Shown here piece by piece: positions 36,409 through 58,732 of a stretch of 58,768 bases of DNA; positions within the stretch are counted from its first letter, which is position 1, and each line of letters starts with the position of its first letter. The position numbers were made by a program, and so were the translations under genes. Source of the DNA: a virus. Location: the IMG/VR virus record IMGVR_UViG_3300023500_000003, positions 1 to 58,768 of that record. One strand, 5' to 3'. Under the pieces are notes generated by a model, which made no database searches, was not told the origin of the DNA, and saw only the letters and a program-made list of their open reading frames with translations.

Positions 36409-36411
36409 ACC

Positions 36412-36888: not shown

Positions 36889-36936
36889 GGGCGGCTCATA
36901 AACGTAATCGCTGGTGGTTGCTGGCATGGAGAGATA

Positions 36937-38922: not shown

Positions 38923-38958
38923 AGATGAATGAACAGGTCAAGTTAAAGGAGAATACTG

Positions 38959-39408: not shown

Positions 39409-39421
39409 AGAACAGAATTAA
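39401..39421 (+). pseudogene. Six-codon remnant of the 6507 gene start
   Basis: MNKEQ followed by N and a stop, overlapping the upstream stop exactly as the 6507 gene does. It marks the break point of an exchange with the 5-9 kb cassette. Confidence 0.45.
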
Positions 39422-39425
39422 AGCT

Positions 39426-39497
39426 ATGGGCTTAAATTATACGACAGTTTATAGAATGCTATCAGATGGATATAAGCCGTTTGAGCCGCAAGCATGA
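39426..39497 (+). CDS. Possible 23-aa HTH-like peptide
   Basis: GLNYTTVYRMLSDGYKPFEP looks like a recognition-helix fragment of a small transcriptional regulator. No ribosome binding site; probably a gene fragment. Confidence 0.25.
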   Translation: MGLNYTTVYRMLSDGYKPFEPQA

Positions 39498-39534
39498 TAT
39501 ATTGGCGATATGGATAAAGATAGGGGATGGTTTG

Positions 39535-40227
39535 ATGAAATATGAAACAACCGGTGAAGTTTTTAAGTCCGGTCGTATAACACTAATAAACGACGACTGC
39601 ATGAATATATTAAAGCAAACACCTGACAATTACTATCACCTTTCTTGCGTCGATCCGCCGTTTGGGCTAGGCGAAAAACTAACGAGTGGGGGAACTTGGG
39701 CAGGAAAATACACATCTTCTGATAGTGCGTGGGATATTGCTCCGGGGAAGCCATATTTTGATGAGCTTAGGAGAGCGGCTGAAAATTGGATAGTATGGGG
39801 GGGAAATAATTTCACGCAGTTTTTGCCGCCAGCAAGATGTTTTTTAATATGGGACAAAGTTGCGAAAATGCAAACAATGGCAGACAGTGAACTGGCACTA
39901 ACATCTTTTGATAAAAACGCAAAAACTTTTTCTCATGTGCGTAATACAAGTGAAAGAAGAATACATTTATGCCAAAAACCTGTCAAACTCTATGAATGGC
40001 TCCTAACAAACTACGCTAACAAGGGTGATAGGATACTGGACACGCACTTGGGCTCAGGCTCAAGCGCAATCGCTGCGCATAATCTTGGGTTTGATTTCAC
40101 AGGAGTTGAGCTTGATCAAGACTATTTCAAGGCAGCAATCGCGCGGCTAGAGAATCATCAGAAACAGCCGACACTTTTTAGCCCACCTCTAACCAAGCCA
40201 GAACCCGAACAGGGGGCGCTATTATGA
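39535..40227 (+). CDS. Beta-class amino-DNA methyltransferase 2
   Basis: 230 residues from ATG 39535 (GGGGAT upstream; in-frame ATG 39466 rejected). VDPPFG at 39-44 is catalytic motif IV; ILDTHLGSGSSAIAAHNLG near 168-186 is the SAM site; QKPVKLYEWLL is the usual motif preceding it. Shorter than the enzyme at 5367 and not closely related to it. N6-adenine or N4-cytosine specificity is not resolved. Probably protects phage DNA. Confidence 0.85.
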   Translation: MKYETTGEVFKSGRITLINDDCMNILKQTPDNYYHLSCVDPPFGLGEKLTSGGTWAGKYTSSDSAWDIAPGKPYFDELRRAAENWIVWGGNNFTQFLPPARCFLIWDKVAKMQTMADSELALTSFDKNAKTFSHVRNTSERRIHLCQKPVKLYEWLLTNYANKGDRILDTHLGSGSSAIAAHNLGFDFTGVELDQDYFKAAIARLENHQKQPTLFSPPLTKPEPEQGALL

Positions 40228-43415: not shown

Positions 43416-43842
43416 CTTCCTCTTTTGGCTCTGTGGGTTCAACATCATACACAAACCCCACATCACCATGCCAGTCTGCAAACGCTTCATCTTCACCCTC
43501 AGAATAGGCTTCAGCGTACTCTTCGTCGCCTTGGATGTCCGCGCCTGCGTCTACTTCTAGGACAGCGTCCTTCCATTCTTGAAATACTGTAAATTCCAAG
43601 GTTTCACTATTTTCTTTGATTCCACGAGCTTTCCTAATCCTTAGCGAGATCTTCCTAGCTCTGGATATCTTGGCGCTCTGACCACGTTTCTTTTTAGCTC
43701 CTTTGATAGCAGCTTTCTTCAGCTTTATCTTTTCAGCCCCTAGGATCTTCAAGTACTTGTTCCCTACAATCTTGAAACCCTTCTTGGGAGGGAGGCGCTT
43801 TACAACTTTCCCTGCGCGGATCATCCGTTTTTTAGCTGGCAT
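43411..43842 (-). CDS. Basic/acidic two-part protein, 143 aa
   Basis: The first ~75 residues are dominated by lysine and arginine (GKVVKRLPPKKGFK, then IKLKKAAIKGAKKKRG), the last ~60 by glutamate and aspartate. This charge layout suits a DNA-binding or packaged protein. AGGAGAAG precedes the start, and the gene overlaps the upstream one. No family recognised. Confidence 0.55.
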   Translation of the reverse strand: MPAKKRMIRAGKVVKRLPPKKGFKIVGNKYLKILGAEKIKLKKAAIKGAKKKRGQSAKISRARKISLRIRKARGIKENSETLEFTVFQEWKDAVLEVDAGADIQGDEEYAEAYSEGEDEAFADWHGDVGFVYDVEPTEPKEEA

Positions 43843-44233
43843 GTGCTTCTCCTGTTAACTGTAACTTCATTTCTGGCCAGGACAATTTCTGTCCGCCTTC
43901 ATACTTAACCGCGTACCCTTGGTTTACCATGATGTCGTTCAGACGTTCACCTTCCCCTACAAAGATATCAGCAAGAAGGGTTGCGCTCTTACCGGCTATC
44001 ACGTGTATCGCTATGGTGAACGTATTGTTGGCATCGGTTAGTACCGATGCTACATACTCTGCTACAAGGAGACCTGCTGCTGCTTCTTCCTCGTCCTGTG
44101 AGTTCATCCTAGGAGTATCGATGTCCCTTAATCTGACCGTCCTTGTTATCTTGATGTCGAAGCCAAGATCCATCTCGACGCTTAGTGAATTGCCGGACTC
44201 CACTTTCAATGCTGTAGCTGTAAATGTTTTCAT
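43832..44233 (-). CDS. Degenerate SNase-like protein
   Basis: 133 residues. TRTVRLRDIDTPRM and the C-terminal NDIMVNQGYAVKYEGGQKLSW align with the adjacent SNase-like protein and with staphylococcal nuclease, but the metal-binding VDGDT is replaced by ESGNS and the conserved arginine region is weak. It is probably a catalytically inactive paralogue that keeps the OB fold. It follows the active-looking copy directly. Confidence 0.65.
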   Translation of the reverse strand: MKTFTATALKVESGNSLSVEMDLGFDIKITRTVRLRDIDTPRMNSQDEEEAAAGLLVAEYVASVLTDANNTFTIAIHVIAGKSATLLADIFVGEGERLNDIMVNQGYAVKYEGGQKLSWPEMKLQLTGEAHAS

Positions 44234-44243
44234 GTTTGGTTTC

Positions 44244-44708
44244 CTAGACGGCGTCCCGCGCCTTATTTAGTGTTAGTTTTCTTTCTTTCCACGGTAATTT
44301 TTTATTACCGCCGTAGGGAATGGCCTGCCCGTTTAACAACATTTCGTTGTTGATATCTACACCGTTGTGGTCAAGCAACGTGCCCATGACTCTGCCGTAC
44401 TTGCCTTTCTTGTCGAGGCGAGACTTAATGACGATTCTGCCACCTTCAGCTTTGAGTCTAGCTTTTAGCCACGCTTTAGCTTCTAGTCCATACTTCTTCT
44501 CGTCCAAGTTGCGTGTACGAGATTCGGCAGTATCAATACCTGACAAGCGGACACGAGTTTTGTATTTTACTCCGTATCCCAGGTCTAGTAGAACGTCAAT
44601 CGTATCACCGTCAACGACGCGTAGTAGATCGGCCATGTACAGATGGATATTTGCAGTAATTTTAGACTTCTTCCACAATCTATCTTTCAAAGTTTTAGGC
44701 TTAGCCAT
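44244..44708 (-). CDS. Thermonuclease (SNase)-family nuclease
   Basis: 154 residues. VVDGDTIDVLLDLGYGV (metal aspartate), TRVRLSGIDTAESR (catalytic arginine and aspartate) and YGLEAKAWLKARL with a following GRVMG fit the SNase order. No signal peptide. AAGGAGG precedes the start. A phage late-gene nuclease may degrade host or competitor DNA or process nucleic acids during exit. Such pairs of SNase domains in tandem genes are uncommon. Confidence 0.8.
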   Translation of the reverse strand: MAKPKTLKDRLWKKSKITANIHLYMADLLRVVDGDTIDVLLDLGYGVKYKTRVRLSGIDTAESRTRNLDEKKYGLEAKAWLKARLKAEGGRIVIKSRLDKKGKYGRVMGTLLDHNGVDINNEMLLNGQAIPYGGNKKLPWKERKLTLNKARDAV

Positions 44709-44751: not shown

Positions 44752-44895
44752 TCAGCTTAATAGTACTTCGGCCACACCCATTATGATCAAAAGCAGGATA
44801 ATTGTTGCCCTCGGCAAGAGGAACCCCCATTCAGCATTCATTGAGTTCCCCAAGTTTCTTTTCTTCATTTTTCGGTTCCAAGGGCTCCGGTTCAT
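44752..44895 (-). CDS. Small membrane protein, 47 aa
   Basis: ATG 44895 overlaps the stop of the upstream lipoprotein gene (ATGA). A basic N-terminus (NRSPWNRKMKKRN) and a C-terminal membrane helix (ATIILLLIIMGVAEVLL). An internal ATG at 44841 would give 29 residues. It could belong to the lysis cassette as an antiholin or small holin; unproven. Confidence 0.45.
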   Translation of the reverse strand: MNRSPWNRKMKKRNLGNSMNAEWGFLLPRATIILLLIIMGVAEVLLS

Positions 44896-45413
44896 TTAGG
44901 CTCTCCAACTTCTTTTCCTTTTCCTGCAACTTCTTTTCCGGCTCGTTCAGTGACTCCATGGTCATCTCCTTTTTTGTTTATCTGTTCCAGTAGCTTTAGC
45001 CACCTGTCTTCACGATCAATCATTGTGCGCCAGTTAGCCACTAGGTTCTTGTAGTTCTGCTCGCTCAACCCAATGTACAGGTTACTGTTGCGGTCAATAG
45101 CAGGAATGATACAAGAGCTACTCATCTTCTCCAAAGCTATAACGTCATACGTCTTCTTAGGATCAAGTTTCAACGCCTTGGCTTTATCAAGACAGGACTT
45201 TGAATTAGCTACTACAGCCTTGGTAGTGATTCGAGGGTAATCCCATACTACAGACATCAGCCCTTGCTTGGCAGGCATCCTGTACATGTAGTTCACCTGG
45301 GCTTGTGGTTTCGTAACTGTAGTAACTTCTAACGGTGCTTTGACAGAACCGCACCCTACTAAGCTGGGGAGTAAGAACACCCCAAGGAGTATCAAAATCG
45401 GCATGTCTCGCAT
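44892..45413 (-). CDS. Lipoprotein, candidate outer-membrane spanin
   Basis: 173 residues. A signal peptide ends with the lipobox LVGC, so the mature protein would be lipid-anchored from that cysteine. It follows a candidate inner-membrane spanin gene with a TGATG overlap, the usual Rz/Rz1 arrangement, although it is longer than typical Rz1 and not proline-rich. Two more cysteines lie mid-protein. It may join the membranes at lysis or act in the virion exit route. Confidence 0.6.
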   Translation of the reverse strand: MRDMPILILLGVFLLPSLVGCGSVKAPLEVTTVTKPQAQVNYMYRMPAKQGLMSVVWDYPRITTKAVVANSKSCLDKAKALKLDPKKTYDVIALEKMSSSCIIPAIDRNSNLYIGLSEQNYKNLVANWRTMIDREDRWLKLLEQINKKGDDHGVTERAGKEVAGKGKEVGEPK

Positions 45414-45796
45414 CACTGAACCCCTTTCTTCAACCAGGAAGTATTCCCCTTGCTGATTGAGCGGTTGATAACTTTCAGCACTAACTCCGAATGGCGGCTG
45501 TTTCTTAGTTTGACCATATCCCTAGCCATCAGTTTGTTATTAGCTGCTGCTAGCTTCTGGTTCAGCTCTTGCTCGTACTTACCCATAGCTTCAATGCTGG
45601 CCTGGTAGTTGTTGGCTTCTGTGACCAGGCTAGCTATATTCTCAGATAACGCTCTATTGGCCGCTGCTGCTTTCTCGGTTTCGCTTACCTGTAAAGTAAG
45701 CTCTGCTTGGGCGGTAGCCAATTCCGCTTTGAAGTAGAACATTCCTGCCATACTTGACGCTGTCATAATTCCCATAACCATCACTACATAAATCAT
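45413..45796 (-). CDS. Candidate inner-membrane spanin (Rz-like)
   Basis: 127 residues from ATG 45796, which overlaps the upstream stop by ATGA and has AAGGAG upstream. One N-terminal membrane helix (MIYVVMVMGIMTASSMAGMF) is followed by a long coiled coil, the topology of Rz i-spanins. The lipoprotein gene next to it fits an o-spanin partner. No sequence signature beyond topology. Confidence 0.6.
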   Translation of the reverse strand: MIYVVMVMGIMTASSMAGMFYFKAELATAQAELTLQVSETEKAAAANRALSENIASLVTEANNYQASIEAMGKYEQELNQKLAAANNKLMARDMVKLRNSRHSELVLKVINRSISKGNTSWLKKGVQ

Positions 45797-46221
45797 CGGT
45801 ATGCTGCTCCTTCTGCTAATAGTGCGCGTTTTAATCTCTCTATACATACAGAAGAAGCTATCGAAGCTGACGCAGGTTTCCATGTACGTGCGAGGAGAGT
45901 AGCGGTAACATCATTGCCAACTTGTTGTAAATCAATTACCACGAGTTGTTTCTGGCCATTCCTGAGCTTCTGCTCGTCCAGTGCGATGCGTGCTTCCAGT
46001 TCATGGATAGTAGTCTGCTTTGTCTTCACATCATACGTCAGTTTCATGATTTCTTGCTTCAGGTAACCTTCGTCGTGCTTGCCTATCTGGAGGTAAATCA
46101 TCCCAGCTGCCCCAACTGCCAAACAGAGGTAACTCATGAATTGCAGTGAGGAGCTAGGAGAGATGTCGAACTTTTCTAAGAACCGCTGGTACACTTTAGC
46201 AAACTTTTCAAAAGTAATCAT
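45793..46221 (-). CDS. Membrane protein with coiled coil, 142 aa
   Basis: A cytoplasmic N-terminus, one membrane helix (MSYLCLAVGAAGMIYLQIG) and a periplasmic coiled coil. It lies between endolysin and the Rz-like gene. It may be a second spanin-like or a regulatory lysis protein. GGAGG precedes the start. Confidence 0.55.
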   Translation of the reverse strand: MITFEKFAKVYQRFLEKFDISPSSSLQFMSYLCLAVGAAGMIYLQIGKHDEGYLKQEIMKLTYDVKTKQTTIHELEARIALDEQKLRNGQKQLVVIDLQQVGNDVTATLLARTWKPASASIASSVCIERLKRALLAEGAAYR

Positions 46222-46244: not shown

Positions 46245-46916
46245 TTAGAAATCAGTGGTCAAGGTAGATTCAATCCACTTCCTATCAAAACACCTGACAT
46301 CAGCATGGATCCAAGTTGGGCTGATTCGTACGGGTTCAAAAGAAGGTACATTTCTTTTTGACCACCCTACCTGCATCTTATCAAACTGCTTATGCACTTC
46401 TTTGACGATTCGATTGCGGTCGGAAGACTCAGGGTAATGTGGACGCAAGTCGCAGGCTTTACCCATGTGATTAGTTGACATCCTTCCGTGGGCGTTATTG
46501 TCATTCCAGCAACGGTAGCCAGAGCTGTAGCGGAACTGGTACTGTGGGAACACTGCTTGCACCATAACAGCAATCCATACGGTCACTGCACTGATGCCTG
46601 GGTATTCATAGTTGTAGTATGCTTCGCACTCCGGTTTCCCTTCACGGTAGTTGTTCTTAAACTTGCCGTTCCCGAAACCACTACAGCTTCCACAGTCACA
46701 GTCCATATCAGCAAGAGATGGTTTGTATTTGTCCCACGCCTGTTGTAATGCTAACTCTGTAGCAGGGCCTACGATTCCATCAGGGTTGCTATCCCCCATG
46801 ACATGCTGCTGGAAACCTTTAATTGCCATCGTGGTATTCTTACCTGGATAGTTATCCGGCACGCCAGCACCGAAGGCGGCTAGTCTGATTTGGAGTTCTC
46901 TAATAGTTAAAGGCAT
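46245..46916 (-). CDS. Endolysin: peptidoglycan-binding plus M15 peptidase
   Basis: 223 residues. Residues 1-62 are a PG_binding_1 domain (LQIRLAAFG, NTTMAIKGFQQ, DGIVGPATELAL). Residues ~100-223 are a VanY-type M15 peptidase with H150 and D156 in NHMGKACD and H204 in WIHADVR as zinc ligands. It cuts peptide crosslinks of peptidoglycan. No signal peptide, so a holin is needed; one follows upstream. A CDCGSC cysteine cluster in the linker is unusual. Confidence 0.88.
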   Translation of the reverse strand: MPLTIRELQIRLAAFGAGVPDNYPGKNTTMAIKGFQQHVMGDSNPDGIVGPATELALQQAWDKYKPSLADMDCDCGSCSGFGNGKFKNNYREGKPECEAYYNYEYPGISAVTVWIAVMVQAVFPQYQFRYSSGYRCWNDNNAHGRMSTNHMGKACDLRPHYPESSDRNRIVKEVHKQFDKMQVGWSKRNVPSFEPVRISPTWIHADVRCFDRKWIESTLTTDF

Positions 46917-46918
46917 TC

Positions 46919-47623
46919 TTATTCTCCGAGCTTGGCTTTCAGTTTCAGCATTTCAACTTCCTGGGCATGTTCACGTCTGTCAGCAGAATCTGATTGTCTG
47001 TCAGTAACAAACATCTTCACCGTAGCAAGAACACCTGCAATAAACGCCATGACGATACCCATAACTTCTACTGAAACATTCTCGGGTTTCATGGACAAAA
47101 TATCAGTAAGTAGCGTGTTAGTCATGTAAAGCATCATAGCAATTACTGCGATGATTGCTACTCGGAACTCACCATAAATCTTGATGACGTAATCAAGGAT
47201 TCCTTGGGACGCTGTATCAATTCCGCAGGCCATGCGAGTGGCCATGGGAGTCTTCTGTATTGCGTTTGCTACTGCTTCAGGCATGGGAGGAACAGGAACA
47301 TGACCGTCTAGCATGTCTTGTACACCCTGTTCACGTTCTGCTACTTCCAGCTCTCGCGCGTCAATGGTCAGATTCTGGCTGATGGCTCTAGCCTGTACTG
47401 CCTCTGTGATAGCTTCCTTCTCAGCTAGAGCAAGAATACGCTCAGACAGGTCATCCTGCTTAGCCGTCATGTCCGCCACGTCCTGGAGTGCCTGTACTGC
47501 AATATCTTCTACTTCAGAGATAGGCATATCTGCTAAATCAGGGTGACTAGCTGTTGCTACGTCAGCACCATGCAGGTCGACTCCTTTTACTGTAGGTTCT
47601 TCGGGTTTTATAACTGTAGTCAT
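46919..47623 (-). CDS. Putative holin with long N-terminal domain
   Basis: 234 residues. The first ~150 are soluble, acidic and coiled-coil-like; then two membrane helices (VAIIAVIAMMLYMTNTLL and VMGIVMAFIAGVLATVKMFV) and a charged tail. Two-helix proteins with a charged C-terminus beside an endolysin are typically holins. The long N-terminal part is atypical and might regulate timing. Confidence 0.6.
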   Translation of the reverse strand: MTTVIKPEEPTVKGVDLHGADVATASHPDLADMPISEVEDIAVQALQDVADMTAKQDDLSERILALAEKEAITEAVQARAISQNLTIDARELEVAEREQGVQDMLDGHVPVPPMPEAVANAIQKTPMATRMACGIDTASQGILDYVIKIYGEFRVAIIAVIAMMLYMTNTLLTDILSMKPENVSVEVMGIVMAFIAGVLATVKMFVTDRQSDSADRREHAQEVEMLKLKAKLGE

Positions 47624-47901
47624 TTCGGTTCTCCGTGGGCCTTGAAGGCTCTATTTTTGATCTGTTGTTCTAACTTTTTCTTTTTCTTCTCCAATCTTTT
47701 GATCAGGTACAGGTTGAACTTCTTGTACCGGCGTTGGTTAGGAGTAAGGTCGTTCCTTGTCAATGCGACCACACGAGAATGCCTGCGTTCAATTGATTGC
47801 TCTACCCTAGTCAGTTCCGACACCAAGTAACGATCCTCGTAGGTAGCCGCGTGTGTTTGGTAGGACAGCGAAAATACAAGTATCAAGGCCGCGAACTTCA
47901 T
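47620..47901 (-). CDS. Exported small protein, 93 aa
   Basis: A signal peptide (MKFAALILVFSLSYQTHAA) followed by a very basic helical protein with a lysine run. Overlaps both neighbours by four bases. Being between the holin gene and a membrane coiled-coil gene, it may belong to the lysis or secretin unit. Confidence 0.55.
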   Translation of the reverse strand: MKFAALILVFSLSYQTHAATYEDRYLVSELTRVEQSIERRHSRVVALTRNDLTPNQRRYKKFNLYLIKRLEKKKKKLEQQIKNRAFKAHGEPK

Positions 47902-48278
47902 AGTAGCTCTAGCTCTTGTAGTTGCGTATCTATCGATTCTTGCAATTTCAGCAGCCTACCGATTTTCTGCTCTAGTGTCCGAGCATAGACACGTTGGTTG
48001 GCTGTGAGGGTAGCCGAGTTGGATTTCAGAACTTCTAGCTCGCCATTAGCCTCTGACAGATCCATATCCACCCACCTGAGATCACTTGCAAGTCGGTACC
48101 GGTAGAAGTTTGTCAGTCGGGTGTACTCAACCAAAGCTTTTGAGGTTGCAATTCCAGAGGCTTTCTGTTCTGACAAAGATGCTGCAACTCGAGAAGCATT
48201 GGCGTATCTGTCTTCTGCGGCTACGATACCTCCAGCTATTGTAGTCGCGACACCTAGTGTCATCATAAAGTTAGCCAT
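47898..48278 (-). CDS. Coiled-coil protein with hydrophobic N-terminus, 126 aa
   Basis: The start at 48278 is chosen for GTGAGGTGAG upstream and a normal hydrophobic start (MTLGVATTIAGGIVAAE); the longer reading from 48362 runs through the 41-bp repeat. The rest is a helical coiled coil. Function unknown. Confidence 0.5.
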   Translation of the reverse strand: MANFMMTLGVATTIAGGIVAAEDRYANASRVAASLSEQKASGIATSKALVEYTRLTNFYRYRLASDLRWVDMDLSEANGELEVLKSNSATLTANQRVYARTLEQKIGRLLKLQESIDTQLQELELL

Positions 48279-48366: not shown

Positions 48367-48612
48367 TTAGAATTGGTTCTTCCTGTCTTGAATCAACGTA
48401 TTAAAATCATTCGCCAATATGCCGAAGTTTTTTTTATCAACGCACATATAGGGAGTACCGGTACCAGGGTTGAGCCATTGAAACGGCTTTAGTCCTAAGG
48501 GCACGTACTTCCTCTCTTGCTGCTTGACAGGCACGGGCACGTTCTCTGTTAGTGTTGCTACAGGAGAAGCGCACCCTGCAAGTATCAGTATAAGGATAAT
48601 TAAGTATGTCAC
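48367..48612 (-). CDS. Lipoprotein next to secretin (possible pilotin or o-spanin)
   Basis: 81 residues from a GTG start five bases after the secretin stop. The lipobox LAGC follows a short hydrophobic signal; the mature part has VPVPVKQ and a cysteine. Close coupling to the secretin suggests a pilotin-like lipoprotein that helps its outer-membrane insertion; an Rz1-like spanin is the alternative. Confidence 0.55.
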   Translation of the reverse strand: MTYLIILILILAGCASPVATLTENVPVPVKQQERKYVPLGLKPFQWLNPGTGTPYMCVDKKNFGILANDFNTLIQDRKNQF

Positions 48613-48617
48613 TCGAG

Positions 48618-50363
48618 CTACTCCGGTAGATATAGTAATCCTTTCATGTTAGGAAATAATCTTTCAGTGGTCATCAACCTCTCACCCGTGAGCTCCTGCG
48701 GATGTGTTATAATAGTCGGGTGGATGAATATCATGAGATTGACTTTATTAGTCTTGTTCTCAGTTTGTGCAAACAGTCTCCCTGCAAAAGGGATGTCACC
48801 AAGGAGGGGAATCCCCGCTGTAGTGTCGGTATCAGAATTTTGTACCAACCCACCCAATACTAGTATCCCGCCATCCTCAGCTACTGCTATTGTTTTTAAT
48901 GACCTCTTGTTGGTTATGATATCAGAGGCTATTGTGGAAGGGGAGATGGAGCTGATTTCTTGCTCGATAATTAGTTCAATATCTCCATTTCCTAATGCAC
49001 GAGGGGTGACTACAAGAGACAGTCCCACATCTTTTCTTTCTATTGTTTGGAAAGGATTAGCACCCTGAGTGCCCCCCTGACTTCCAGTAACGAATGGAAC
49101 ATTCTGGCCTACGGAGAGTCTTGCTTCTTCATTACTCAAGACAAGCACGGACGGTACCGATAAGATGTTGGCCTCGGTATTAACTTTCAAAGCCTTCAAA
49201 ATACCGCCAAAAGATAGCGGGTTACCAGTGAACAATCCCACTACTAGACTTTTTCCAGTATCTAGGAGCTGATCTCCAATGGCAACATTCCCTGCACCGA
49301 CCCCTCCGCCAGCTGTAGGGGAGTTGTTTAGAACCCAGTCAATTCCAAACGCCAGTGAAGTATCTCCCGCTACTTCAACTATAATCATCTCTACTAGTAT
49401 CTGCTGCCTGGGTGTATCTAATTTGGATATTAGCAATCTAATCTTTTTCTTGCTGCCTTCTGGTCCGGACAGGACTATGGCGTTCCGGATCTTGTCTACC
49501 GCTATCTCCACTTCTTTGGTAAGGGAGGGCAATGTTGATAGGACGGACAGTACATTATCAGCTTTAGTATGCTCGACCAGAATAAGCTCTACTCGAGATA
49601 AGGATACCGGAGTAGGAGGAAGGTCTACCGCTTTCATCATAGTTACTGCATTTGTAACTGCTGATCTAGCACCTACCAATATTAAAGTATTGTTTACAGT
49701 ATTAGCAATCACCCTCACTTCGTTTTCTTGGTAGAGGGTTTTCACAGATAAAGCTGCTACATCTGCATTCACATTCTTCAATTGAATGACCCTAATAGTA
49801 TTAGCGGAAGACGAGTCAAGTACTTGCAGCAGTGAATACATCTTCTTAATGTTTACGCCGCTATCAGTAATGATGATCATTCCTAACCCCAATGGAGTTA
49901 TAAGTTTCCCATCACGGGATAGGAGAGGTGTGATTATAGCCGCCGCCTTTGTTGGCGAGATGTATAGTAGATTATAAATGGAGGTTACTATATTCTCGCC
50001 TGAGATACCGCCAATACCACCATTTGCTGCAATTCTCGGAACTATCTTCAGGTATCCATTATTCTCAACCGACGTCAGACGGTTCATCTCAAGCACTGAA
50101 TCTAGGAGCAAGCGAAGTTGAGGTTTGGACATACCATTAGTCACATGTACGGTTACTTCCCCTGAAACCTGCTTATCCAGTAGTACGTTCAGATTCAGTA
50201 TTTTTGACACTAGAAGGATAAAACCTTTCAACTCCACCTTGTCAACATTTAGAGTTATCAGATCTGATTTTACCACGCCGGCACCCTCTGCAGAATGCCC
50301 AAAGGTTATCAGTCCTAATAGTACTAGAAAGACTGCTAGTACTTTGGTCGCTCTGTCCATCAT
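48618..50363 (-). CDS. Secretin (GspD/PilQ-type outer-membrane channel)
   Basis: 581 residues. A signal peptide (about 1-27) is followed by an N0 domain (LNVDKVELKGFILLVSKIL), N1-N3 repeats (e.g. IRVIQLKNVNADVAALSVK, VELILVEHTKADNVLSVL) and a C-terminal secretin domain (RQQILVEMIIVEV, then VPSVLVLSNEEARLSVGQNVPFV, LSLVVTPRAL and GGLVQNSDTDTTAGIPLLGDIP). This is the full order of type II secretion GspD, slightly shorter. Secretins form gated outer-membrane rings; filamentous phages use one for exit, but tailed phages normally do not. AAAGGAG precedes the start. No other secretion-system gene is visible here. Confidence 0.9.
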   Translation of the reverse strand: MMDRATKVLAVFLVLLGLITFGHSAEGAGVVKSDLITLNVDKVELKGFILLVSKILNLNVLLDKQVSGEVTVHVTNGMSKPQLRLLLDSVLEMNRLTSVENNGYLKIVPRIAANGGIGGISGENIVTSIYNLLYISPTKAAAIITPLLSRDGKLITPLGLGMIIITDSGVNIKKMYSLLQVLDSSSANTIRVIQLKNVNADVAALSVKTLYQENEVRVIANTVNNTLILVGARSAVTNAVTMMKAVDLPPTPVSLSRVELILVEHTKADNVLSVLSTLPSLTKEVEIAVDKIRNAIVLSGPEGSKKKIRLLISKLDTPRQQILVEMIIVEVAGDTSLAFGIDWVLNNSPTAGGGVGAGNVAIGDQLLDTGKSLVVGLFTGNPLSFGGILKALKVNTEANILSVPSVLVLSNEEARLSVGQNVPFVTGSQGGTQGANPFQTIERKDVGLSLVVTPRALGNGDIELIIEQEISSISPSTIASDIITNKRSLKTIAVAEDGGILVLGGLVQNSDTDTTAGIPLLGDIPFAGRLFAQTENKTNKVNLMIFIHPTIITHPQELTGERLMTTERLFPNMKGLLYLPE

Positions 50364-50399: not shown

Positions 50400-52763
50400 T
50401 TAGAATTTCTTCATCTCGAATACGCTATTTACGAAGAAGTCACCCAGTATGCCAGTGAACCTGTACCTGGAAGTGCCATCCGACCAATACAGCGTTTGGT
50501 AATCACCGCCAATGGTGATAGCTATTTGATTGTTCCAAACAGGGGTAAACGTAGAGCCAATAGTCCCTACACGGGGCTGTACTCCCGTTCCTAGTGACCT
50601 ATGATGATAAGTAACACCCTCAGATATGGTAATAGTGCCGCCTGCTCCATCGTTGTAGCGCCACTCGAAGTTTTTGAGGCCTGCCTGAGTAAAACGGAAC
50701 TCATAGTTATCAATCAGTGTTACCACTACTTCCGCATCAGCAACAGCATATACGGAACTTCCCGAAGTACTTACAGGAACAGCCCTATTCCACACGCCGC
50801 CACTGAATATCATCAGTAGCGCATTAGTGGTATCGTACCAAGCATCGCCATTAGCAGGATTGATTGGAGCAGTAGCTTGAGTCACCGCCCCTACTCCTTG
50901 TGCGCCTGCTGCTCCTGATAAACCTTGAATACCTGCAGAGCCAGTTAATCCTTGGGGACCTGTTAAACCTATACTTCCATCTGCGCCTGGTGTACCTGAC
51001 ACTCCTTGTGTGCCTGGCACCCCTTGCGCTCCTGCGGCTCCTACTGAAACTATCGAGAGTGTGCTACCAGTAACAGTTATGTTATCCCCGGCTGAGGAAG
51101 TGAGTACAGATGTGATGACATCACCTGCTGCCACGGTCAGTACTCCTTTCGCTAGTACAAAGGTAGGAGAATTTACTGTTGCTCCGCCCCTTCCTGTGAT
51201 AGTGGATGCTACCCCATTCACGAATATGGTCACCAGTTTATTGTTCGAAGATGCTCTGATAACAACCGAAGACGAGAGAAAGTAAGTACCCGCGCTCACA
51301 ATAGTCAATGAGTTAGTTGTAGTGCTTGCTGTAATACCAGAGGATAATCCTGTGATAGTACCAAACACGAGAGTGTGAGGATATACAGAAACCACAGTGT
51401 CGCCTGAATTTGACATTGACCCATATGCTGCAGCTGCGGAGATGTTTGATCCAGTTGCTCCTACTGCACCTTGAATACCAGCGACACCTTGAACACCCTG
51501 TGATCCCGTTAACCCTGTTGGTCCAGTAGAGCCAGTAGCACCTTGAATACCCTGTGACCCCGTTGGTCCAGTAATACCTTGAATACCCTGTGATCCGGTA
51601 ATGCCCACCAAAGACGAATTACTTACCCACCCTGCTATTGCTTTAGGACCAAACATGGTAGATGTTGTAGTATTTAGATAGAAGTCTCCTAATACTCCGT
51701 CTGCTATGAGGGGATCTGCGCTCCCATTGAGCACAGTGTTTCCGGGAGTTCCAGTAGTACCTGCTAAGCCTTGAATACCGGCAGCTCCCGTTAAACCTTG
51801 AATACCGGCAGCTCCCGTTAAACCTTGAATACCGTCAGCTCCCGTTAAACCCTGAATACCGGTAGCTCCTGCTAAGCCTTGAATACCGGCAGCTCCCGTT
51901 AAACCCTGAATACCGTCAGCTCCTGTAGCACCTGTTAAACCTGTTGGTCCTGCTAAGCCTTGAACACCATCAGCACCTGTTAAACCTTGAGTGCCAGCTT
52001 GTGCTAGTGGTAACCATATAGCAGCGTCCGACGAGGGGATAGTTCCTGTGTTAGCCTGTATTGCGGAGAAGCTTCCACCCGCATGCGAAACAACGTCGAG
52101 GGTTGAGTAAGCAAGGGAAGTATTCCACACGCCTCTCAGCACTAACGTAGCTCCGTCGGTACCATCAACGCCGTCAACTCCTGCTACTCCAGCAACACCT
52201 TGAAGACCGAATGCTCCAGCCTGTCCGACAATCCCATCCTTCCCATCTTTTCCGTCTATGCCATTAGCACCAGGTTCTCCATCTTTCCCATCTTTCCCGT
52301 CGACCCCGTCAGTACCAGTTGTGCCGTCTACGCCGTCAGTACCAGTTGTTCCATCCATGCCGTCAGTACCAGCAGTACCAGTTGTACCGGATCCTGACAT
52401 AGTGACTGTAGGGAGTAAGCGGTCTGACTCCTTCTGTGCTTCGGATAGCAGAGCATCGGGAATTACAGCCTCTCTAACGACCTGGAAAGTATCTGCAGAT
52501 AAGCCCAAGGTGGTGGGGGATACCACAGCCGTGGCTCCTCCTCCTGTTGCAACTGCACCTACGGCCATCAGAATTTTAGCGTTCTCCATAACGAAGTCGT
52601 AGGCTTTACTTGCGCCAGACTTCACGCCATCGAATACAGATGTTACGAGGTTTTGCTGCACCTCAGTATGTAAATCTTTTGCACCGTCAGAAAGTTGAGA
52701 GGCTATTTCTGCCGCTTCATCTTTCAGCAAGCTGGCAGCTTTTTCTGTTATCTCATCCGTCAT
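50400..52763 (-). CDS. Collagen-repeat fibre protein with shared tip domain
   Basis: 787 residues. The N-terminal ~115 are helical with a hydrophobic stretch (ILMAVGAVATGGGATAVV). From ~125 to ~640 there are many Gly-X-Y collagen triplets (TGTDGVDG, GLTGADGIQG and variants) interrupted by a small beta domain near residues 205-255 and another around 440-570. The C-terminal ~110 residues (FEWRYNDGAGG, then YQTLYWSDGTSRY to the end) are homologous to those of the next upstream fibre gene. It is probably a receptor-binding or decoration fibre forming a trimer. Collagen repeats vary easily in number. Confidence 0.75.
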   Translation of the reverse strand: MTDEITEKAASLLKDEAAEIASQLSDGAKDLHTEVQQNLVTSVFDGVKSGASKAYDFVMENAKILMAVGAVATGGGATAVVSPTTLGLSADTFQVVREAVIPDALLSEAQKESDRLLPTVTMSGSGTTGTAGTDGMDGTTGTDGVDGTTGTDGVDGKDGKDGEPGANGIDGKDGKDGIVGQAGAFGLQGVAGVAGVDGVDGTDGATLVLRGVWNTSLAYSTLDVVSHAGGSFSAIQANTGTIPSSDAAIWLPLAQAGTQGLTGADGVQGLAGPTGLTGATGADGIQGLTGAAGIQGLAGATGIQGLTGADGIQGLTGAAGIQGLTGAAGIQGLAGTTGTPGNTVLNGSADPLIADGVLGDFYLNTTTSTMFGPKAIAGWVSNSSLVGITGSQGIQGITGPTGSQGIQGATGSTGPTGLTGSQGVQGVAGIQGAVGATGSNISAAAAYGSMSNSGDTVVSVYPHTLVFGTITGLSSGITASTTTNSLTIVSAGTYFLSSSVVIRASSNNKLVTIFVNGVASTITGRGGATVNSPTFVLAKGVLTVAAGDVITSVLTSSAGDNITVTGSTLSIVSVGAAGAQGVPGTQGVSGTPGADGSIGLTGPQGLTGSAGIQGLSGAAGAQGVGAVTQATAPINPANGDAWYDTTNALLMIFSGGVWNRAVPVSTSGSSVYAVADAEVVVTLIDNYEFRFTQAGLKNFEWRYNDGAGGTITISEGVTYHHRSLGTGVQPRVGTIGSTFTPVWNNQIAITIGGDYQTLYWSDGTSRYRFTGILGDFFVNSVFEMKKF

Positions 52764-52856: not shown

Positions 52857-54200
52857 TTAATATTTAGTCATCTCGAATACATTACTTACGAAGGCGTTAT
52901 TCAGTATGCCAGTAAACTTGTACCTGGAAATACCATCAGACCAATACAGAGTTTGGTAATCACCACTGATGGTGAGACTGAGGCTTATATCGAGCCAAAC
53001 AGGTACAAAAGTAGAACCAAGACTCCCCGCCCTAGCCTGTGACTGAGTTCCTGATGATATATGAGATAGTGTAACACTATCTGACAGATTGATACTGCCA
53101 CCAACCCCATCGTTGTAGCGCCACTCAAAGTACCTGTTACCAGCAGGGGTAAAGCGGAACTCGTAATTATCAATCATTACTACGTTTACGCCAGAATCAG
53201 CAATCACGTATACGGAACTTCCTGCTGATGTACTGCCTGTTACTGACCACACTGCTGCTCCCGGTGTCGCATTGGTACAGGTGTATGATATTCCTGCGGA
53301 GGTGTCAATCCAGACGGAGCCAGCAGTATAACCTAGGCTGCTGTCATCTGTTATGGCAGGAGGTACTACGGATACCAAGTTATTAGCTATTGACGCGCTC
53401 GTTACGTTCTGGCTAGGGATTTCAGTTAATGACATGTAGGCGCCGTAGACGTCCACGTCGACCTCACTAAAAGCAGAAGATATTATCAGAGTGATAACAT
53501 CGCCAGCTGACAAACTTAGATGCGCTGTGGCAGAGCAAGCGTTAGGGTTATTTGCAATCGCTGAAGTCACTGCGATTACCGTGGATGCGATACCATTAAC
53601 ATGAAGGGTGGCTGTTTTGATATTGGACAGTGCACGGAAGGATGCTCCCAGAGATACCGTATAGTTGCCTGAACGAGCGACGGTCATGCTATTTGTTGCG
53701 GTTGCTACTATGATACCAACGGCGGTTCCTGGAGCGGTATCGAATTCAGCAGTATAAGGGAAAACTACGTTTGTGATTCCAGTAGAGTCCGACACTGATC
53801 CGAAGTGTAGTGCTTGTGCTACTGCTACCGGGCCTCCCGCTGAGATACTCCATACAGCAGCACCAACAGAATTATCCAAGCAGACGTAGCTAGTATCTGT
53901 GGCTGTATCTACCCACGTGGAGCCTACTTCATATAGAGAGGCGGCGTCGTCTGTGATTGCTGGGGCTACGGTAGCCACCATGTTTGATTTCACTGCGTCT
54001 GAGATGCGAACCCAGTGAGCGTCTGTACCCACTGCTGGAATAATTGAGATTCCATTATTGAGATATCCAGCACTTACTTCAAAACGGAACAGTGCGTCCA
54101 GCTCAGCGATGTGGGCTAATTCGTTTGGGCGGCCTACTAGGGCTGCGGCAACAATAGTTGTGATGTTTAGATTGCTTATTTGGTTCTGGTTGAGGCTCAT
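52857..54200 (-). CDS. Fibre protein with shared N-terminal and tip modules
   Basis: 447 residues from 54200, chosen because AGGAGGG precedes it at proper distance (in-frame 54239 rejected). The N-terminus (NQNQISNLNITTIVAAALVG, RPNELAHIAELDALF) is shared with the proteins at 54259 and 57193. Two copies of a ~45-residue repeat with the pattern DD..GYxxGSxW(V/I)DT then YxC then AAVW follow. The C-terminal domain matches the collagen-repeat protein. Probably a tail or head fibre paralogue. Confidence 0.7.
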   Translation of the reverse strand: MSLNQNQISNLNITTIVAAALVGRPNELAHIAELDALFRFEVSAGYLNNGISIIPAVGTDAHWVRISDAVKSNMVATVAPAITDDAASLYEVGSTWVDTATDTSYVCLDNSVGAAVWSISAGGPVAVAQALHFGSVSDSTGITNVVFPYTAEFDTAPGTAVGIIVATATNSMTVARSGNYTVSLGASFRALSNIKTATLHVNGIASTVIAVTSAIANNPNACSATAHLSLSAGDVITLIISSAFSEVDVDVYGAYMSLTEIPSQNVTSASIANNLVSVVPPAITDDSSLGYTAGSVWIDTSAGISYTCTNATPGAAVWSVTGSTSAGSSVYVIADSGVNVVMIDNYEFRFTPAGNRYFEWRYNDGVGGSINLSDSVTLSHISSGTQSQARAGSLGSTFVPVWLDISLSLTISGDYQTLYWSDGISRYKFTGILNNAFVSNVFEMTKY

Positions 54201-54222
54201 TTCATACCCTCCTGAAGGGATA

Positions 54223-54248
54223 GAAGAGGGGCTTTTCAACCCCTCTTC
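54223..54248 (-). terminator. Intercistronic stem-loop before fibre gene
   Basis: GAAGAGGGG and CCCCTCTTC form a perfect 9-bp stem with an 8-base loop, placed between a stop codon and the next ribosome binding site. The same layout recurs at 57152. Confidence 0.65.
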
Positions 54249-54258
54249 CTAGATAGTA

Positions 54259-57129
54259 TTACTTGGTATAGTACAGTACAGCATTAAAGCCGAATTGGAG
54301 GGCTTTACCTGACACAATAATGCTACAGCCATTAAAGACATTAGCAGAGCTGGTTAATATCTTGACATCAACGGAGTTTGCATTGGTACCCCCAGTGTAC
54401 AGGTACTCCCCCGTAGATGCAGTTTTACTTAACCTACCCAAGAAGGACGACTGAGGTAGTAGCTCCGAAATCATAGCTGTAAAGGTCGTGGTGGAAGTTA
54501 TTGCGAGGTTATTTTGGCTTTGGATAACCATCTCATAGATAGATTTTCCATCTATCCAAGTACGGTTGGTAACTCGCTCCGTAGTAGCCATAGCATACGA
54601 CTCAGTTATGATAGTGGTGGAAGACGGGATTTGTTGTACCATGAAAGAGACCCGAGTAGGGGTGTCAAGCTGAGTAGACGATACTAAGTTAACTACCGTT
54701 CCGGCGGTTAAAGACCCTACCCACTCTACAGCAGCAACGTCGCCCATAATATCTGCATATGTTACAGCTACCGTATTAGCCCCCTCAACGATAGAGTAGC
54801 TGACGCCTGGAAAGAGTGTCTGAACGCTGGCGGATAGTCTGTAAACACCGTCCTGTGCTATAGTGAACCCTTGTGCTGCTGCTAAGCCGAACGGGTCATT
54901 TACTGTAGTTGAAGCTGTGTTTAGCAGGCCTCCTGAGAATGTTGCCACAAACGTATTCGCGATAGCTTGTGCATGATGTAATGACACAGGGGTGCCGGCA
55001 GACTCTCCCAGACGTTTAAGTACCCAGAGGGTAGGAGCTACTTCGGTGATGTAAATGATTTGACCATCTATGCTTGCTACTTCAGTGCCATCAAGTACGC
55101 CATTAAGATATTCTCCTGTGGGAACCGCGAAAGTTATCACATTAGTGCTTACGTTGGTGCAGTTAAACTGATACCTACGTTGTGCATTAGAAGCAGTGGG
55201 CATAGTAATAATGAATGGCGAATTTAAGGAGGAGTCTAGGTTATAGATACCATCTTGCAACATGAAGGGAGATGTCTTAGTCCCCCGTTTCTGCATGCCT
55301 GACTCAATGGGCACCCATGTTGATTGGCCTAGATTATCCACACAAATGTATAAAATGCTAGAGCTTGCTACTAACCAGCGTGAACCTACAGAATAACCTT
55401 GCCCAATCCCGTCACTGGACGTTGGGGCTACAGTAGCAGTTAAGTTGTCTAATACACCTCCTCCTGAATCTATCCTGTTCCATACTGCAGCGTTGAGGGT
55501 GGACCTTACGCAGATGTATGAGATTTTTTGAACTACGTTAACCCAGAGTGACCCAGAGATATAGCCCGCTGAATTATCATCAGTATTTGTGGGGTCTACG
55601 ATAGCTGCTAAGTTGTTCTGTGCCCCTGGTGGGATGTCTATCTGGTTCCATGCTGCATCGTTGTTGGTGGATCTTGTGCAGATATAAGACGTCCTAGATG
55701 ACTTATTGACCCAAAGGGATCCTATTTCATAAAGGGAGCTACTGTCGTCAGTGGTAGAGGGGTATGCACTAGTATTGAAGTTATTCTTTGGTCCTGCGGA
55801 CGTACCGTCTATCTGATGCCACACTGATGCACCTGTGGCCGCGTTTACGCAGACATAAGAGACGCTCGCAGAGGTGTCAATCCAGACAGACCCTACAGCG
55901 TATCCAGCAGTATTGTCATCGGATACAGCAGGTGCTGCAGTAGCAATGTAGTTGTTCTGTGTTCCTGTGGCTGCTCCATCTACTTGTGACCACACTGCTG
56001 CGCCTGCTGTTGCATCCACACAGATGTATACTGAACCTGATGCGGTGTTAACCCACTCAGACCCTACAGCGTAACCAGACCCACTGTCATCTGTGACTGT
56101 TGGTGCTGTTGTGGCTGCTAGGTTATTTGTGATGGATGCGGTAGTAGTAGTCTGTGTGGCAATCTCGGTAACAGAGAATGTTGATCTAATACCAATCTCT
56201 CCTACAGTTCCGCTTATGGCGTCAACTCCGACTTCGCTGTTCGCTGTAGGTTTGAAGTAAGCAACCTGAGAAGGTAAGACTCCTACGGCGGTGTTGAGGT
56301 TGCCAGAGAACGGCTGCCAAGCAGAGCCAATCTGCGCGTTAGCGGTGAGGTCCACAAAGCGGAAGACGGTGTCGCCCGTAACAGGCGAGTTTCCCTGGAT
56401 GTTAGCCTCTAGTCTATACAACTTCCCTGCTTTTAGTCCTGTGATCTTTCCGCCAGTATTAGCGGCCCCAATGACAACCGATAGTTCTGTTCCTTGCTTA
56501 AAGGCCTCGGTATCGAAGTTATAATGTGTGTCGCCGAAGTTGTTAGTGGTTGTAGCTAGCGCGGCTTGAACTATAGAAATCTCACCAAAGGTGTTAGAAT
56601 CCTTAATAAGATTCCATACTGCAGCACCGACTGTAGAATCCACACAGATATATGCAGAGTCAGTTAATACATCAACCCACGTGGAACCTACTTCATATAG
56701 AGAGGCGGAATCGTCTGTGATTGCTGGGGCTACGGTAGCATTGTACTTAGACTGTGGTCCACCTGCTCCAGTGGTCGGAGACCATACAGAGGCACCAACA
56801 GAATTGTCCAAGCAGACGTAGCTAGTATCTGTGGCTGTATCTACCCAGACGGATCCTACTTCGTACAGAGAGGCAGAGTCATCTGTGATTGATGGGGCTA
56901 CGACCGCCTCCAGGTTTGATTTCACTGCGTCTGAGATACGAACCCAGTGAGCGTTGACGCCTAAGGCAGGAATAATTGAGATGCCATTGTCGATAGCTCC
57001 AGCATTTACCTCATACCGGTACAGCGCGTCCAGTTCGGCAATATGTGAGACCTCATTCGGTCGGCCTACTAAAGAGGCTGCTGTTACTGTTAGGATGTGG
57101 AAATTGTTTACTTGATTCTGGCTGATCAT
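54259..57129 (-). CDS. Large modular fibre/repeat protein, 956 aa
   Basis: The start at 57129 is preferred because the ATG at 57135 is too close to AGGAGGG. The N-terminal NQVNNFHI and LVGRPNEVSHIAELDAL module is shared with two neighbours. It carries about seven copies of the ~45-residue repeat (DD...YxxGSxWV then YxCVD then AAVW), separated by beta-rich domains, one around residues 190-330 and others in the C-terminal 330 residues. Its C-terminal end differs from those of the other two. It could be an adhesin displayed on the tail, with the repeats as spacer or glycan-binding units. Confidence 0.7.
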   Translation of the reverse strand: MISQNQVNNFHILTVTAASLVGRPNEVSHIAELDALYRYEVNAGAIDNGISIIPALGVNAHWVRISDAVKSNLEAVVAPSITDDSASLYEVGSVWVDTATDTSYVCLDNSVGASVWSPTTGAGGPQSKYNATVAPAITDDSASLYEVGSTWVDVLTDSAYICVDSTVGAAVWNLIKDSNTFGEISIVQAALATTTNNFGDTHYNFDTEAFKQGTELSVVIGAANTGGKITGLKAGKLYRLEANIQGNSPVTGDTVFRFVDLTANAQIGSAWQPFSGNLNTAVGVLPSQVAYFKPTANSEVGVDAISGTVGEIGIRSTFSVTEIATQTTTTASITNNLAATTAPTVTDDSGSGYAVGSEWVNTASGSVYICVDATAGAAVWSQVDGAATGTQNNYIATAAPAVSDDNTAGYAVGSVWIDTSASVSYVCVNAATGASVWHQIDGTSAGPKNNFNTSAYPSTTDDSSSLYEIGSLWVNKSSRTSYICTRSTNNDAAWNQIDIPPGAQNNLAAIVDPTNTDDNSAGYISGSLWVNVVQKISYICVRSTLNAAVWNRIDSGGGVLDNLTATVAPTSSDGIGQGYSVGSRWLVASSSILYICVDNLGQSTWVPIESGMQKRGTKTSPFMLQDGIYNLDSSLNSPFIITMPTASNAQRRYQFNCTNVSTNVITFAVPTGEYLNGVLDGTEVASIDGQIIYITEVAPTLWVLKRLGESAGTPVSLHHAQAIANTFVATFSGGLLNTASTTVNDPFGLAAAQGFTIAQDGVYRLSASVQTLFPGVSYSIVEGANTVAVTYADIMGDVAAVEWVGSLTAGTVVNLVSSTQLDTPTRVSFMVQQIPSSTTIITESYAMATTERVTNRTWIDGKSIYEMVIQSQNNLAITSTTTFTAMISELLPQSSFLGRLSKTASTGEYLYTGGTNANSVDVKILTSSANVFNGCSIIVSGKALQFGFNAVLYYTK

Positions 57130-57151
57130 TTTCATACCCTCCTTAAGGGAT

Positions 57152-57178
57152 AGGACAGGGCCGTAGTAGCCCTGCCCC
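57152..57178 (-). terminator. Intercistronic stem-loop before the large fibre gene
   Basis: AGGACAGGGC and GCCCTGCCCC pair over 10 positions including wobble pairs, with a 7-base loop. The element keeps the same stop-hairpin-RBS arrangement as at 54223, which indicates that gene plus leader was duplicated. Confidence 0.6.
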
Positions 57179-57192
57179 TAGATAGTCTTACT

Positions 57193-57804
57193 TTATCGTA
57201 CAGTGATGGTGTCGCCAAGATACGTGGCAACGGACAGAGAGAAAGTTACAGCGGAGATGTAGGTTACATCAGTGCCTTTCACTAACTCGATGCCATTCAG
57301 TAGTACCTGTACTTTTGACGCGTTGAATGCTGCTGCGTTTGCTCCCAATGCTGCTGTGGTGGTATGCGCGGCGGATGCAGCTACGGTAGCTGCTACTGCG
57401 ATGTTGTCATGTGAAGAAGCCAACGGGTTATCTGCACCTGAAATCAATACCCATACAGCGGATGCAGCAGTACTATCAGTGCATATATACACGTCACTGC
57501 TGGTAGTATCAACCCACTTCGATCCAACTGAGTAGCCTGCTGCTGCGTCGTCAGTTGCTACAGGAGGAACGGTTCCCGCATAGTTATCCTTCAACGAGAT
57601 GTTTCCTACTACCTTCCAGAAGGCGTTCGTGCCAAGTGCTGGAAAAGTAGTTACAGCGTCTGCTACTGCCAGTGCATCGATGGAGTAGTAGAAGTGGTTA
57701 TTCAAGGAAGCTACATATGCTACCTCGTTTGGGCGGCCTACTAGGGCTGCTGCAGCTACGTCTACTACACTGTGGTCTCTGATCTGATTCTGGTTAATTG
57801 CCAA
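57193..57804 (-). CDS. Short fibre-module protein, 203 aa
   Basis: TTG start behind AAAGGAG. The same N-terminal NQNQI and LVGRPNEVAYVASL module as two neighbours, one copy of the DD..GYxxGSxWVDT repeat, and a C-terminal domain (VQVLLNGIELVKGTDVTYIS) that resembles the end of the 57821 protein (VVVQLNGFEQVKSVDALWVS). Possibly an adaptor or small fibre subunit. Confidence 0.6.
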   Translation of the reverse strand: MAINQNQIRDHSVVDVAAAALVGRPNEVAYVASLNNHFYYSIDALAVADAVTTFPALGTNAFWKVVGNISLKDNYAGTVPPVATDDAAAGYSVGSKWVDTTSSDVYICTDSTAASAVWVLISGADNPLASSHDNIAVAATVAASAAHTTTAALGANAAAFNASKVQVLLNGIELVKGTDVTYISAVTFSLSVATYLGDTITVR

Positions 57805-57820
57805 GATTCTTCTCCTTTAG

Positions 57821-58732
57821 TTACGGTTTGATCGTTACAGTGTCACCACTGTAAACTTCGGTGGACAGAGAGAAGGAAGTATTAGAAACCCAGAGGGCAT
57901 CTACACTTTTCACTTGCTCAAATCCGTTCAGCTGTACTACGACAGTACTCGTGTTGAACGTTGGTGCGTCTACTCCCAATGGTACCGATGGCGCTGTGAT
58001 AGCGGTTCCTACAGGCGTGGTAGCTAGGATGTTGATAATGTCAAAACTTGAGGACTGTACTGCTCCTCCTCCCTGCTTCCAGATAGCGGCGCCTGTTGTG
58101 GCGTCCACACAGGTAAACAGTTTATCAGTAGTTGTGTTGATCCATACATCTCCTACAGCATAGCCATTGGCTGCGTCTGTAGTGGCCGTAGGATCAGCTG
58201 TAGCTGACTTTGTACGAACTGATATCGGTAACCACACAGCAGCGCCTGCGGTGACAACACTTGCTAGGAATGTTCTTCCTGTTAAAGTATTATACCAGTT
58301 TGAGCCAACCGCGTATCCTGCTGTTACGTCGTCAGTTACTGTTGGGTTAGCAACGGCGTTCAAGGTATCTGTTCCTGCTGGCGCGCCAGTGGCTACCCAT
58401 ACAGCAGCCCCGGTTGAAGGAGACTGACAGACGAAGACGGTAGAAGTTGCTGTGTTGATCCACCTGGATCCTGCTGCATATCCTGAGGCAGCGTCGTCTG
58501 TTGCAGTAGGGTCGGTAGTAGCGACGAAGTTCTCAGTAATCGCTGTTACACCGGTGCCACCATCCTGGATTACAGTCAATCCTAGCTCAAGGATGATTGT
58601 GCGCATTGCAAAGTAACCATCGTCTGGAATAGTAGTCGAGCCACCGCCAGGCGATAGAGTTAGTGTTGTGCCTCCGTATGCAGCGGGCAGGTCAAACTGC
58701 ACATGTGCAGTTGTGTTATTCGTTAAGATCAT
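57821..58732 (-). CDS. Repeat-containing virion-associated protein, 303 aa
   Basis: AAAGGAGG precedes ATG 58732. A beta-rich N-terminal domain (ILTNNTTAHVQFDLPAA) is followed by three copies of the ~45-residue repeat and the C-terminal VQLNGFEQVKSVDALW domain shared with the gene at 57193. Likely a fibre or baseplate-attached protein. It is the first gene at the right edge; structural genes probably continue beyond the window. Confidence 0.65.
   Translation of the reverse strand: MILTNNTTAHVQFDLPAAYGGTTLTLSPGGGSTTIPDDGYFAMRTIILELGLTVIQDGGTGVTAITENFVATTDPTATDDAASGYAAGSRWINTATSTVFVCQSPSTGAAVWVATGAPAGTDTLNAVANPTVTDDVTAGYAVGSNWYNTLTGRTFLASVVTAGAAVWLPISVRTKSATADPTATTDAANGYAVGDVWINTTTDKLFTCVDATTGAAIWKQGGGAVQSSSFDIINILATTPVGTAITAPSVPLGVDAPTFNTSTVVVQLNGFEQVKSVDALWVSNTSFSLSTEVYSGDTVTIKP

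What the first reader, a model, noticed from the sequence alone, without database searches (positions are those of the whole stretch)
48367..50363. GspD-like secretin plus lipoprotein in a tailed-phage late operon
The protein has a signal peptide, N0-N3-type domains and a complete secretin domain, and is followed by a tightly coupled lipoprotein. Secretins serve type II secretion, pili and filamentous phage exit; their presence next to an endolysin/holin/spanin cassette of a tailed phage suggests an unusual outer-membrane lysis or export route.
Basis: partly seen in the sequence, partly recalled or inferred. Interest (0 to 1): 0.88.

Follow-up and report, generated by a model that had tools for sequence, protein, structure and literature searches.

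The report
GspD-like secretin in tailed-phage late operon
A large tailed phage carries, between its tail-fibre and cell-lysis genes, a complete gated outer-membrane channel protein of the kind bacteria use for protein secretion, which no isolated tailed phage we could search has, so it may reveal a new way for a phage to open or pass the outer membrane.

Summary
The ORF at 48618-50363 (-) encodes a 581-residue secretin with signal peptide, N0-N1-N2-N3 domains, a gated barrel and a short C-terminal tail. A lipoprotein ORF (48367-48612) starts 6 bases after it. The pair lies between collagen-like tail-fibre genes and a holin-like/endolysin/Rz-like cassette, in a 58.8-kb fragment of a large virulent phage.

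It is a deep, long-branch relative of type II secretion GspD: full-length PDB match 1e-68; TIGR02517 at 350.7 bits, just under the 351.35 cut-off; at best about 34% identity to any bacterial GspD. It is not a filamentous-phage pIV. No T2SS or filamentous-phage partner gene is in the window.

Its composition is atypical for the phage, while genes on both sides look phage-like: an acquired gene, not an assembly join. The barrel and gate are conserved, but N0, N1 and N3 have diverged more than in GspDs of equal barrel divergence.

No isolated tailed phage, and none of 50 related IMG/VR contigs, has one.

Best mechanism (inferred): a late-made outer-membrane channel, freed from the T2SS, that helps open the envelope at the end of infection. 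Export, receptor masking and inner-membrane poisoning remain open.

The parts
48618..50363 (-). GspD-like secretin, 581 aa: signal peptide about 1-27, N0 36-112, N1 122-185, N2 188-250, N3 257-320, secretin barrel/gate 321-553, short tail 554-581
48367..48612 (-). 81-aa lipoprotein (lipobox LAGC), 5 bases between the secretin stop and its GTG start; disordered linker then C-terminal helix 60-80 (low-confidence model)
47898..48275 (-). about 125-aa envelope protein (N-terminal hydrophobic segment, coiled coil); ATG at about 48275 is a better start than the TTG of the 154-aa ORF
47620..47901 (-). 93-aa protein with cleavable-looking signal peptide and basic coiled coil, weakly similar to the protein before it (0 of 1000 shuffles)
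46919..47623 (-). 234-aa protein with two C-terminal TM segments, holin-like
   Evidence: function inferred
46245..46916 (-). endolysin: PG_binding_1 plus M15-like peptidase motif (NHMGKACDL...WIHADV)
   Evidence: peptidase assignment by motif only
45793..46221 (-). TM plus coiled coil, Rz-like (weak, phrog_739 0.0047)
45413..45883 (-). TM plus coiled coil, Rz-like inner-membrane spanin candidate (phrog_739 3.8e-5)
44892..45416 (-). 174-aa lipoprotein (LVGC), outer-membrane spanin candidate (weak, phrog_456 0.013)
50400..52763 (-). collagen-repeat tail fibre directly upstream of the secretin
52857..58732 (-). four further repeat-bearing ORFs (phrog_33012; repeats shared with virion/tail-fibre proteins of Roseobacter-group and Rhizobium phages)

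Best explanation
A virulent tailed phage (here a fragment of a larger genome) has acquired a GspD-lineage secretin and expresses it late, with a coupled lipoprotein, as part of its envelope/lysis module. The protein is Sec-exported and would assemble a ring (about 15 subunits in relatives) in the outer membrane. The lipoprotein probably helps it reach or stay in the outer membrane (pilotin-like in role, not in fold) or couples it to the spanin-like proteins. Freed from the type II machine, the channel contributes to opening the outer envelope at the end of infection, with holin, endolysin and spanin-like proteins. Shown: identity, domains, conserved gate, operon position, foreign composition, absence of secretion partners in the window. 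Inferred: assembly, localisation, lipoprotein partnership, lysis role.
For: Full-length GspD architecture; barrel 42-51% identical to GspDs and 65 of 79 strongly conserved GspD columns kept, including VPFVTGS and PFQTIERKDVG. At equal barrel identity, N0/N1/N3 are 28/25/23% identical against 41/36/33% for GspD pairs, as expected if T2SS docking is no longer selected. No GspC, GspF or Zot match, and no GspE match over the cut-off, in the window. Tight placement between fibre and lysis genes. Tail after the barrel 29 aa against 58-162 aa in the GspDs inspected.
Against: No experiment. The gate is intact and N0-N3 are kept, which a pure lysis pore would not need. The cassette already has spanin-like proteins, so an extra outer-membrane opener may be redundant. 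No relative shares the arrangement, so conservation of linkage cannot be tested. The N-domain comparison uses non-independent pairs drawn from this protein's own best hits.
Confidence: 0.38

Rival explanations
1. Gated export conduit: the channel lets a late phage product (free fibre, hydrolase or nuclease) out of the periplasm before lysis, alone or by using the host's type II inner-membrane machine.
For: Intact gate and N0-N3; two signal-peptide/envelope proteins and two nucleases lie in the same operon.
Against: No ATPase, platform or GspC in the window; N domains, the docking side, are the most diverged part.
Confidence: 0.2
2. Receptor masking or superinfection exclusion: the phage uses a secretin as receptor and makes its own or a mixed one to hide or block it.
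For: Gene is next to the fibre genes; phage VP2 binds the T2SS secretin EpsD through its tail fibre gp20 (PMC8101328); phage lipoproteins can block receptors (own knowledge).
Against: Too diverged (about 33%) to co-assemble readily with a host GspD; late position suits lysis better than exclusion.
Confidence: 0.17
3. Inner-membrane killer: without a true pilotin the secretin multimerises in the inner membrane and permeabilises it, acting like a holin or a lysis accelerator.
For: Mislocalised secretins permeabilise the inner membrane and kill psp mutants (PMC5596341); tail after the barrel is short; no known pilotin fold detected.
Against: A holin-like gene is already present; a dedicated lipoprotein follows the gene; many hosts have the Psp defence.
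Confidence: 0.13
4. Passive cargo (moron) or host fragment with no role for the phage, including an assembly artefact.
For: Foreign composition (z -1.8, like the methyltransferase genes; core genes mostly +2 to +4), single occurrence. A chimeric portal-secretin contig exists in IMG/VR (L232).
Against: Gene is intact, with its own Shine-Dalgarno, and phage-like genes lie on both sides (fibre z +2.6; lysis z +1.9 and +2.0), so an artefact needs two exact joins.
Confidence: 0.12

Closest known systems
GspD, type II secretion secretin (PulD, XcpQ, EpsD; TIGR02517)
   Same: N0-N1-N2-N3-secretin order, gate motifs, full-length sequence and fold match
   Different: Just under the equivalog cut-off, at best about 34% identity, diverged N domains, 29-aa tail, no T2SS genes in the window, phage late operon
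pIV of filamentous phages (PHROG 1012)
   Same: Phage-encoded secretin; barrel about 35-40% identical; the PHROG profile it matches (2e-79)
   Different: pIV-type rows lack the N1/N2 region (alignment A1) and sit in small genomes with Zot/pI; all sampled pIVs form one side of a branch that excludes this protein (100/100)
Phage lysis cassettes with spanins; type 10 secretion (holin/endolysin/spanin)
   Same: Operon position and neighbours
   Different: The literature searches showed no paper that describes a secretin as part of such a cassette (titles and abstracts read only)
T2SS pilotins (PulS, AspS)
   Same: Small lipoprotein coupled to a secretin gene
   Different: Mature part 68 aa, no detectable similarity, predicted single C-terminal helix at low confidence

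Membership tests
Secretin superfamily (PF00263) | Secretin barrel/gate domain over the curated cut-off | tested here: met
   152 bits against cut-off 27.5, residues 391-552
GspD (T2SS secretin) | N0-N1-N2-N3-secretin architecture | tested here: met
   Pfam N0, Secretin_N x3, Secretin; XcpQ match 33-554; model
GspD (T2SS secretin) | TIGR02517 equivalog cut-off | tested here: not met
   350.7 bits against 351.35; narrowly missed, and far above all other secretin subfamilies
GspD (T2SS secretin) | Encoded with or serving GspC/E/F machinery | tested here: not met
   No GspC or GspF match; GspE only sub-cut-off matches in the helicase and clamp-loader genes; host genome unknown
GspD (T2SS secretin) | 12-15-mer outer-membrane ring | not testable with these tools
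   only monomer prediction available
pIV (inovirus) | Short secretin grouping with pIV and carried with Zot/pI | tested here: not met
   pIVs form one clade without it, 100/100; no Zot. The AU test cannot say whether it lies just inside or just outside the GspDs
Pilotin (for the 81-aa lipoprotein) | Lipobox and coupling to secretin gene | tested here: met
   LAGC; starts 6 bases after the secretin stop
Pilotin (for the 81-aa lipoprotein) | Known pilotin fold or sequence | tested here: inconclusive
   No PDB sequence match, model pLDDT 62
Outer-membrane spanin (for the 81-aa lipoprotein) | Match to an Rz1-type family | tested here: inconclusive
   phrog_812 E 0.039 only

The most novel reading that the evidence does not exclude
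A tailed phage uses a dedicated secretin ring plus lipoprotein as an outer-membrane stage of lysis or egress, a mode of envelope opening distinct from spanins and disruptins.
Probability: 0.3. Interest if true: 0.85.

Novelty: new variant of a known kind. Interest (0 to 1): 0.62.

Why it matters
Secretins are known in bacterial secretion, pili and filamentous-phage exit. A GspD-type secretin inside a tailed phage's late operon was found nowhere else in 50,697 phage records or in the IMG/VR motif scans. It would link lytic phages to secretin channels, either as a new outer-membrane step of lysis or as an export or receptor device, and the alternatives can be separated with two genes in a laboratory strain.

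Tried and rejected
Acinetobacter phage MD-2021a pulD: host chromosome deposited as phage. L012: GspD next to prophage tail genes, read as host DNA beside a prophage. L237/L241/L253: inovirus-type genes (Zot-like plus pIV) in 47-54 kb contigs. L232: portal fused in frame to a secretin end, judged chimeric. Lipoproteins 81 aa and 174 aa as paralogues: not significant (93 of 1000 shuffles reach the score). Own promoter or terminator for the secretin: nothing beyond chance. Single-protein scans of IMG/VR for close relatives of the polymerase, terminase and fibre: none. A raw tetranucleotide drop at 48-57 kb first suggested a join; after correction for protein sequence only the secretin and a few other genes stay atypical.

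Full report
WHAT WAS CHECKED. The window is a complete IMG/VR record of 58,768 bases, linear, so probably a fragment. The secretin ORF 48618-50363 (-) and the lipoprotein ORF 48367-48612 (-) exist as described. The secretin scores far above chance in Pfam (Secretin 1.1e-44, N0 1.7e-12, Secretin_N in three stretches), PHROG (protein IV of M13, 2e-79), NCBIfam (TIGR02517 GspD 1.5e-104) and PDB sequences (XcpQ 1.3e-68 along residues 33-554).

THE PHAGE. The left arm holds a terminase (about 30-35% identical in tblastn to Rhizobium phages of Kleczkowskaviridae, Acinetobacter phage Ab1-TPeters, E. coli phages IME392 and EP_H11, Thermus phage phiLo, Cobetia phage Carin-5), DNA polymerase, clamp and clamp loader, helicases, primase, UvsX-like recombinase, SbcCD and an RNA polymerase beta'-like protein. 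These relatives have records of about 110-207 kb, so the window is probably a part; capsid, portal and tape-measure genes were not found among the proteins scanned. The right arm is all on the minus strand: repeat fibres, collagen fibre, secretin, lipoprotein, two coiled-coil envelope proteins, holin-like, endolysin, two Rz-like ORFs, a second lipoprotein, two nucleases.

STRUCTURE. With an alignment of 71 bacterial GspDs the AlphaFold2 model has mean pLDDT 80, about 90 in N0-N3 and most of the barrel; the region after the signal peptide, a stretch at 340-373 and the tail are low. Foldseek puts GspD structures first (PulD 6hcg 2.5e-31). In the viral library the significant matches are two filamentous-phage pIV proteins and one unnamed entry, A0A345MS08, whose source I could not identify. 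TM-scores are low because the monomer's domains are flexibly placed.

ORIGIN. In a 54-row tree of the N3/barrel region all pIVs form one side of a branch without this protein (100/100); it sits at the base of the GspD side on a long branch, and the AU test cannot say whether inside or just outside the sampled GspDs (FastTree agrees). So it is GspD-like, not pIV-like, and not a recent copy of a known gspD.

FOREIGN GENE, NOT A JOIN. Tetranucleotide usage was compared with sequences back-translated from the same proteins with the left arm's codon usage. Core genes score mostly z +2 to +4, the endolysin and holin-like genes +1.9 and +2.0, the collagen fibre +2.6, but the secretin -1.8, like the methyltransferase genes at 36.4 kb (0.0) and 39.5 kb (-1.6). 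Two of the other fibre ORFs are also low (+0.2, -1.0). The secretin is thus atypical between phage-like neighbours. These z-scores are modest and the null ignores codon-pair effects.

WHAT SELECTION KEPT. Of 79 columns conserved in at least 93% of GspDs, 65 are kept. The gate and barrel are 42-51% identical to GspDs, while N0, N1, N2, N3 are 28, 25, 23 and 23%; GspD pairs with the same barrel identity have 41, 36, 28 and 33%. The side that docks on the T2SS has diverged most. The tail after the barrel is 29 residues, against 58-162 in the GspDs inspected.

HOW UNUSUAL. tblastn of the whole protein against 50,697 phage records matched 68, none covering 80% of the query; the 60 listed are filamentous-phage-type records, one unannotated 4.4-kb record, and a contaminated Acinetobacter record in two copies; 8 weaker ones were not listed. 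With N0-N3 as query only that contaminated record is matched. Two motif scans of IMG/VR gave mostly inovirus-sized contigs; the longer ones inspected were explained as host or integrated inovirus DNA. Fifty related IMG/VR records had no PF00263 match; many are fragments. The literature library gave no tailed-phage secretin, but it holds only open-licence papers.

HOW IT MAY WORK. Best reading: a late outer-membrane channel that helps open the envelope. The intact gate and retained N0-N3 are the main argument against a simple lysis pore and keep the export reading alive. Receptor masking is suggested by the neighbouring fibres and by phage VP2 binding EpsD (PMC8101328). Inner-membrane poisoning is suggested by the toxicity of mislocalised secretins (PMC5596341). 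None of these steps was tested here.

LIMITS.

Noticed in passing
29700-32483: 927-aa RNA polymerase beta'-like protein (TIGR02386 5e-94) with an ADADGD motif where cellular enzymes have NADFDGD; no beta subunit seen in the window.
   Followed up: partly
36405-40227: DNA methyltransferase genes with composition unlike the phage core, likely acquired.
   Followed up: partly
43832-44708: Two adjacent nuclease ORFs of the same PHROG (452) after the lysis genes.
   Followed up: no
45413-46221: Two Rz-like TM/coiled-coil ORFs overlapping by 91 bases in different frames.
   Followed up: no
52857-58732: A repeat (roughly DD..Y..GS.W.D......C......AAVW) across several fibre ORFs, shared with proteins of Roseobacter-group and Rhizobium phages.
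   Followed up: partly
L232:2186-3715: IMG/VR contig in which a phage portal-like ORF runs in frame into a secretin C-terminus, followed by a CoaE-like kinase; judged an assembly chimera.
   Followed up: partly
L011 (CAKLQH020000023.1): Record named Acinetobacter phage MD-2021a carries bacterial chromosomal genes (hemC, hemD, trpE, T2SS).
   Followed up: yes
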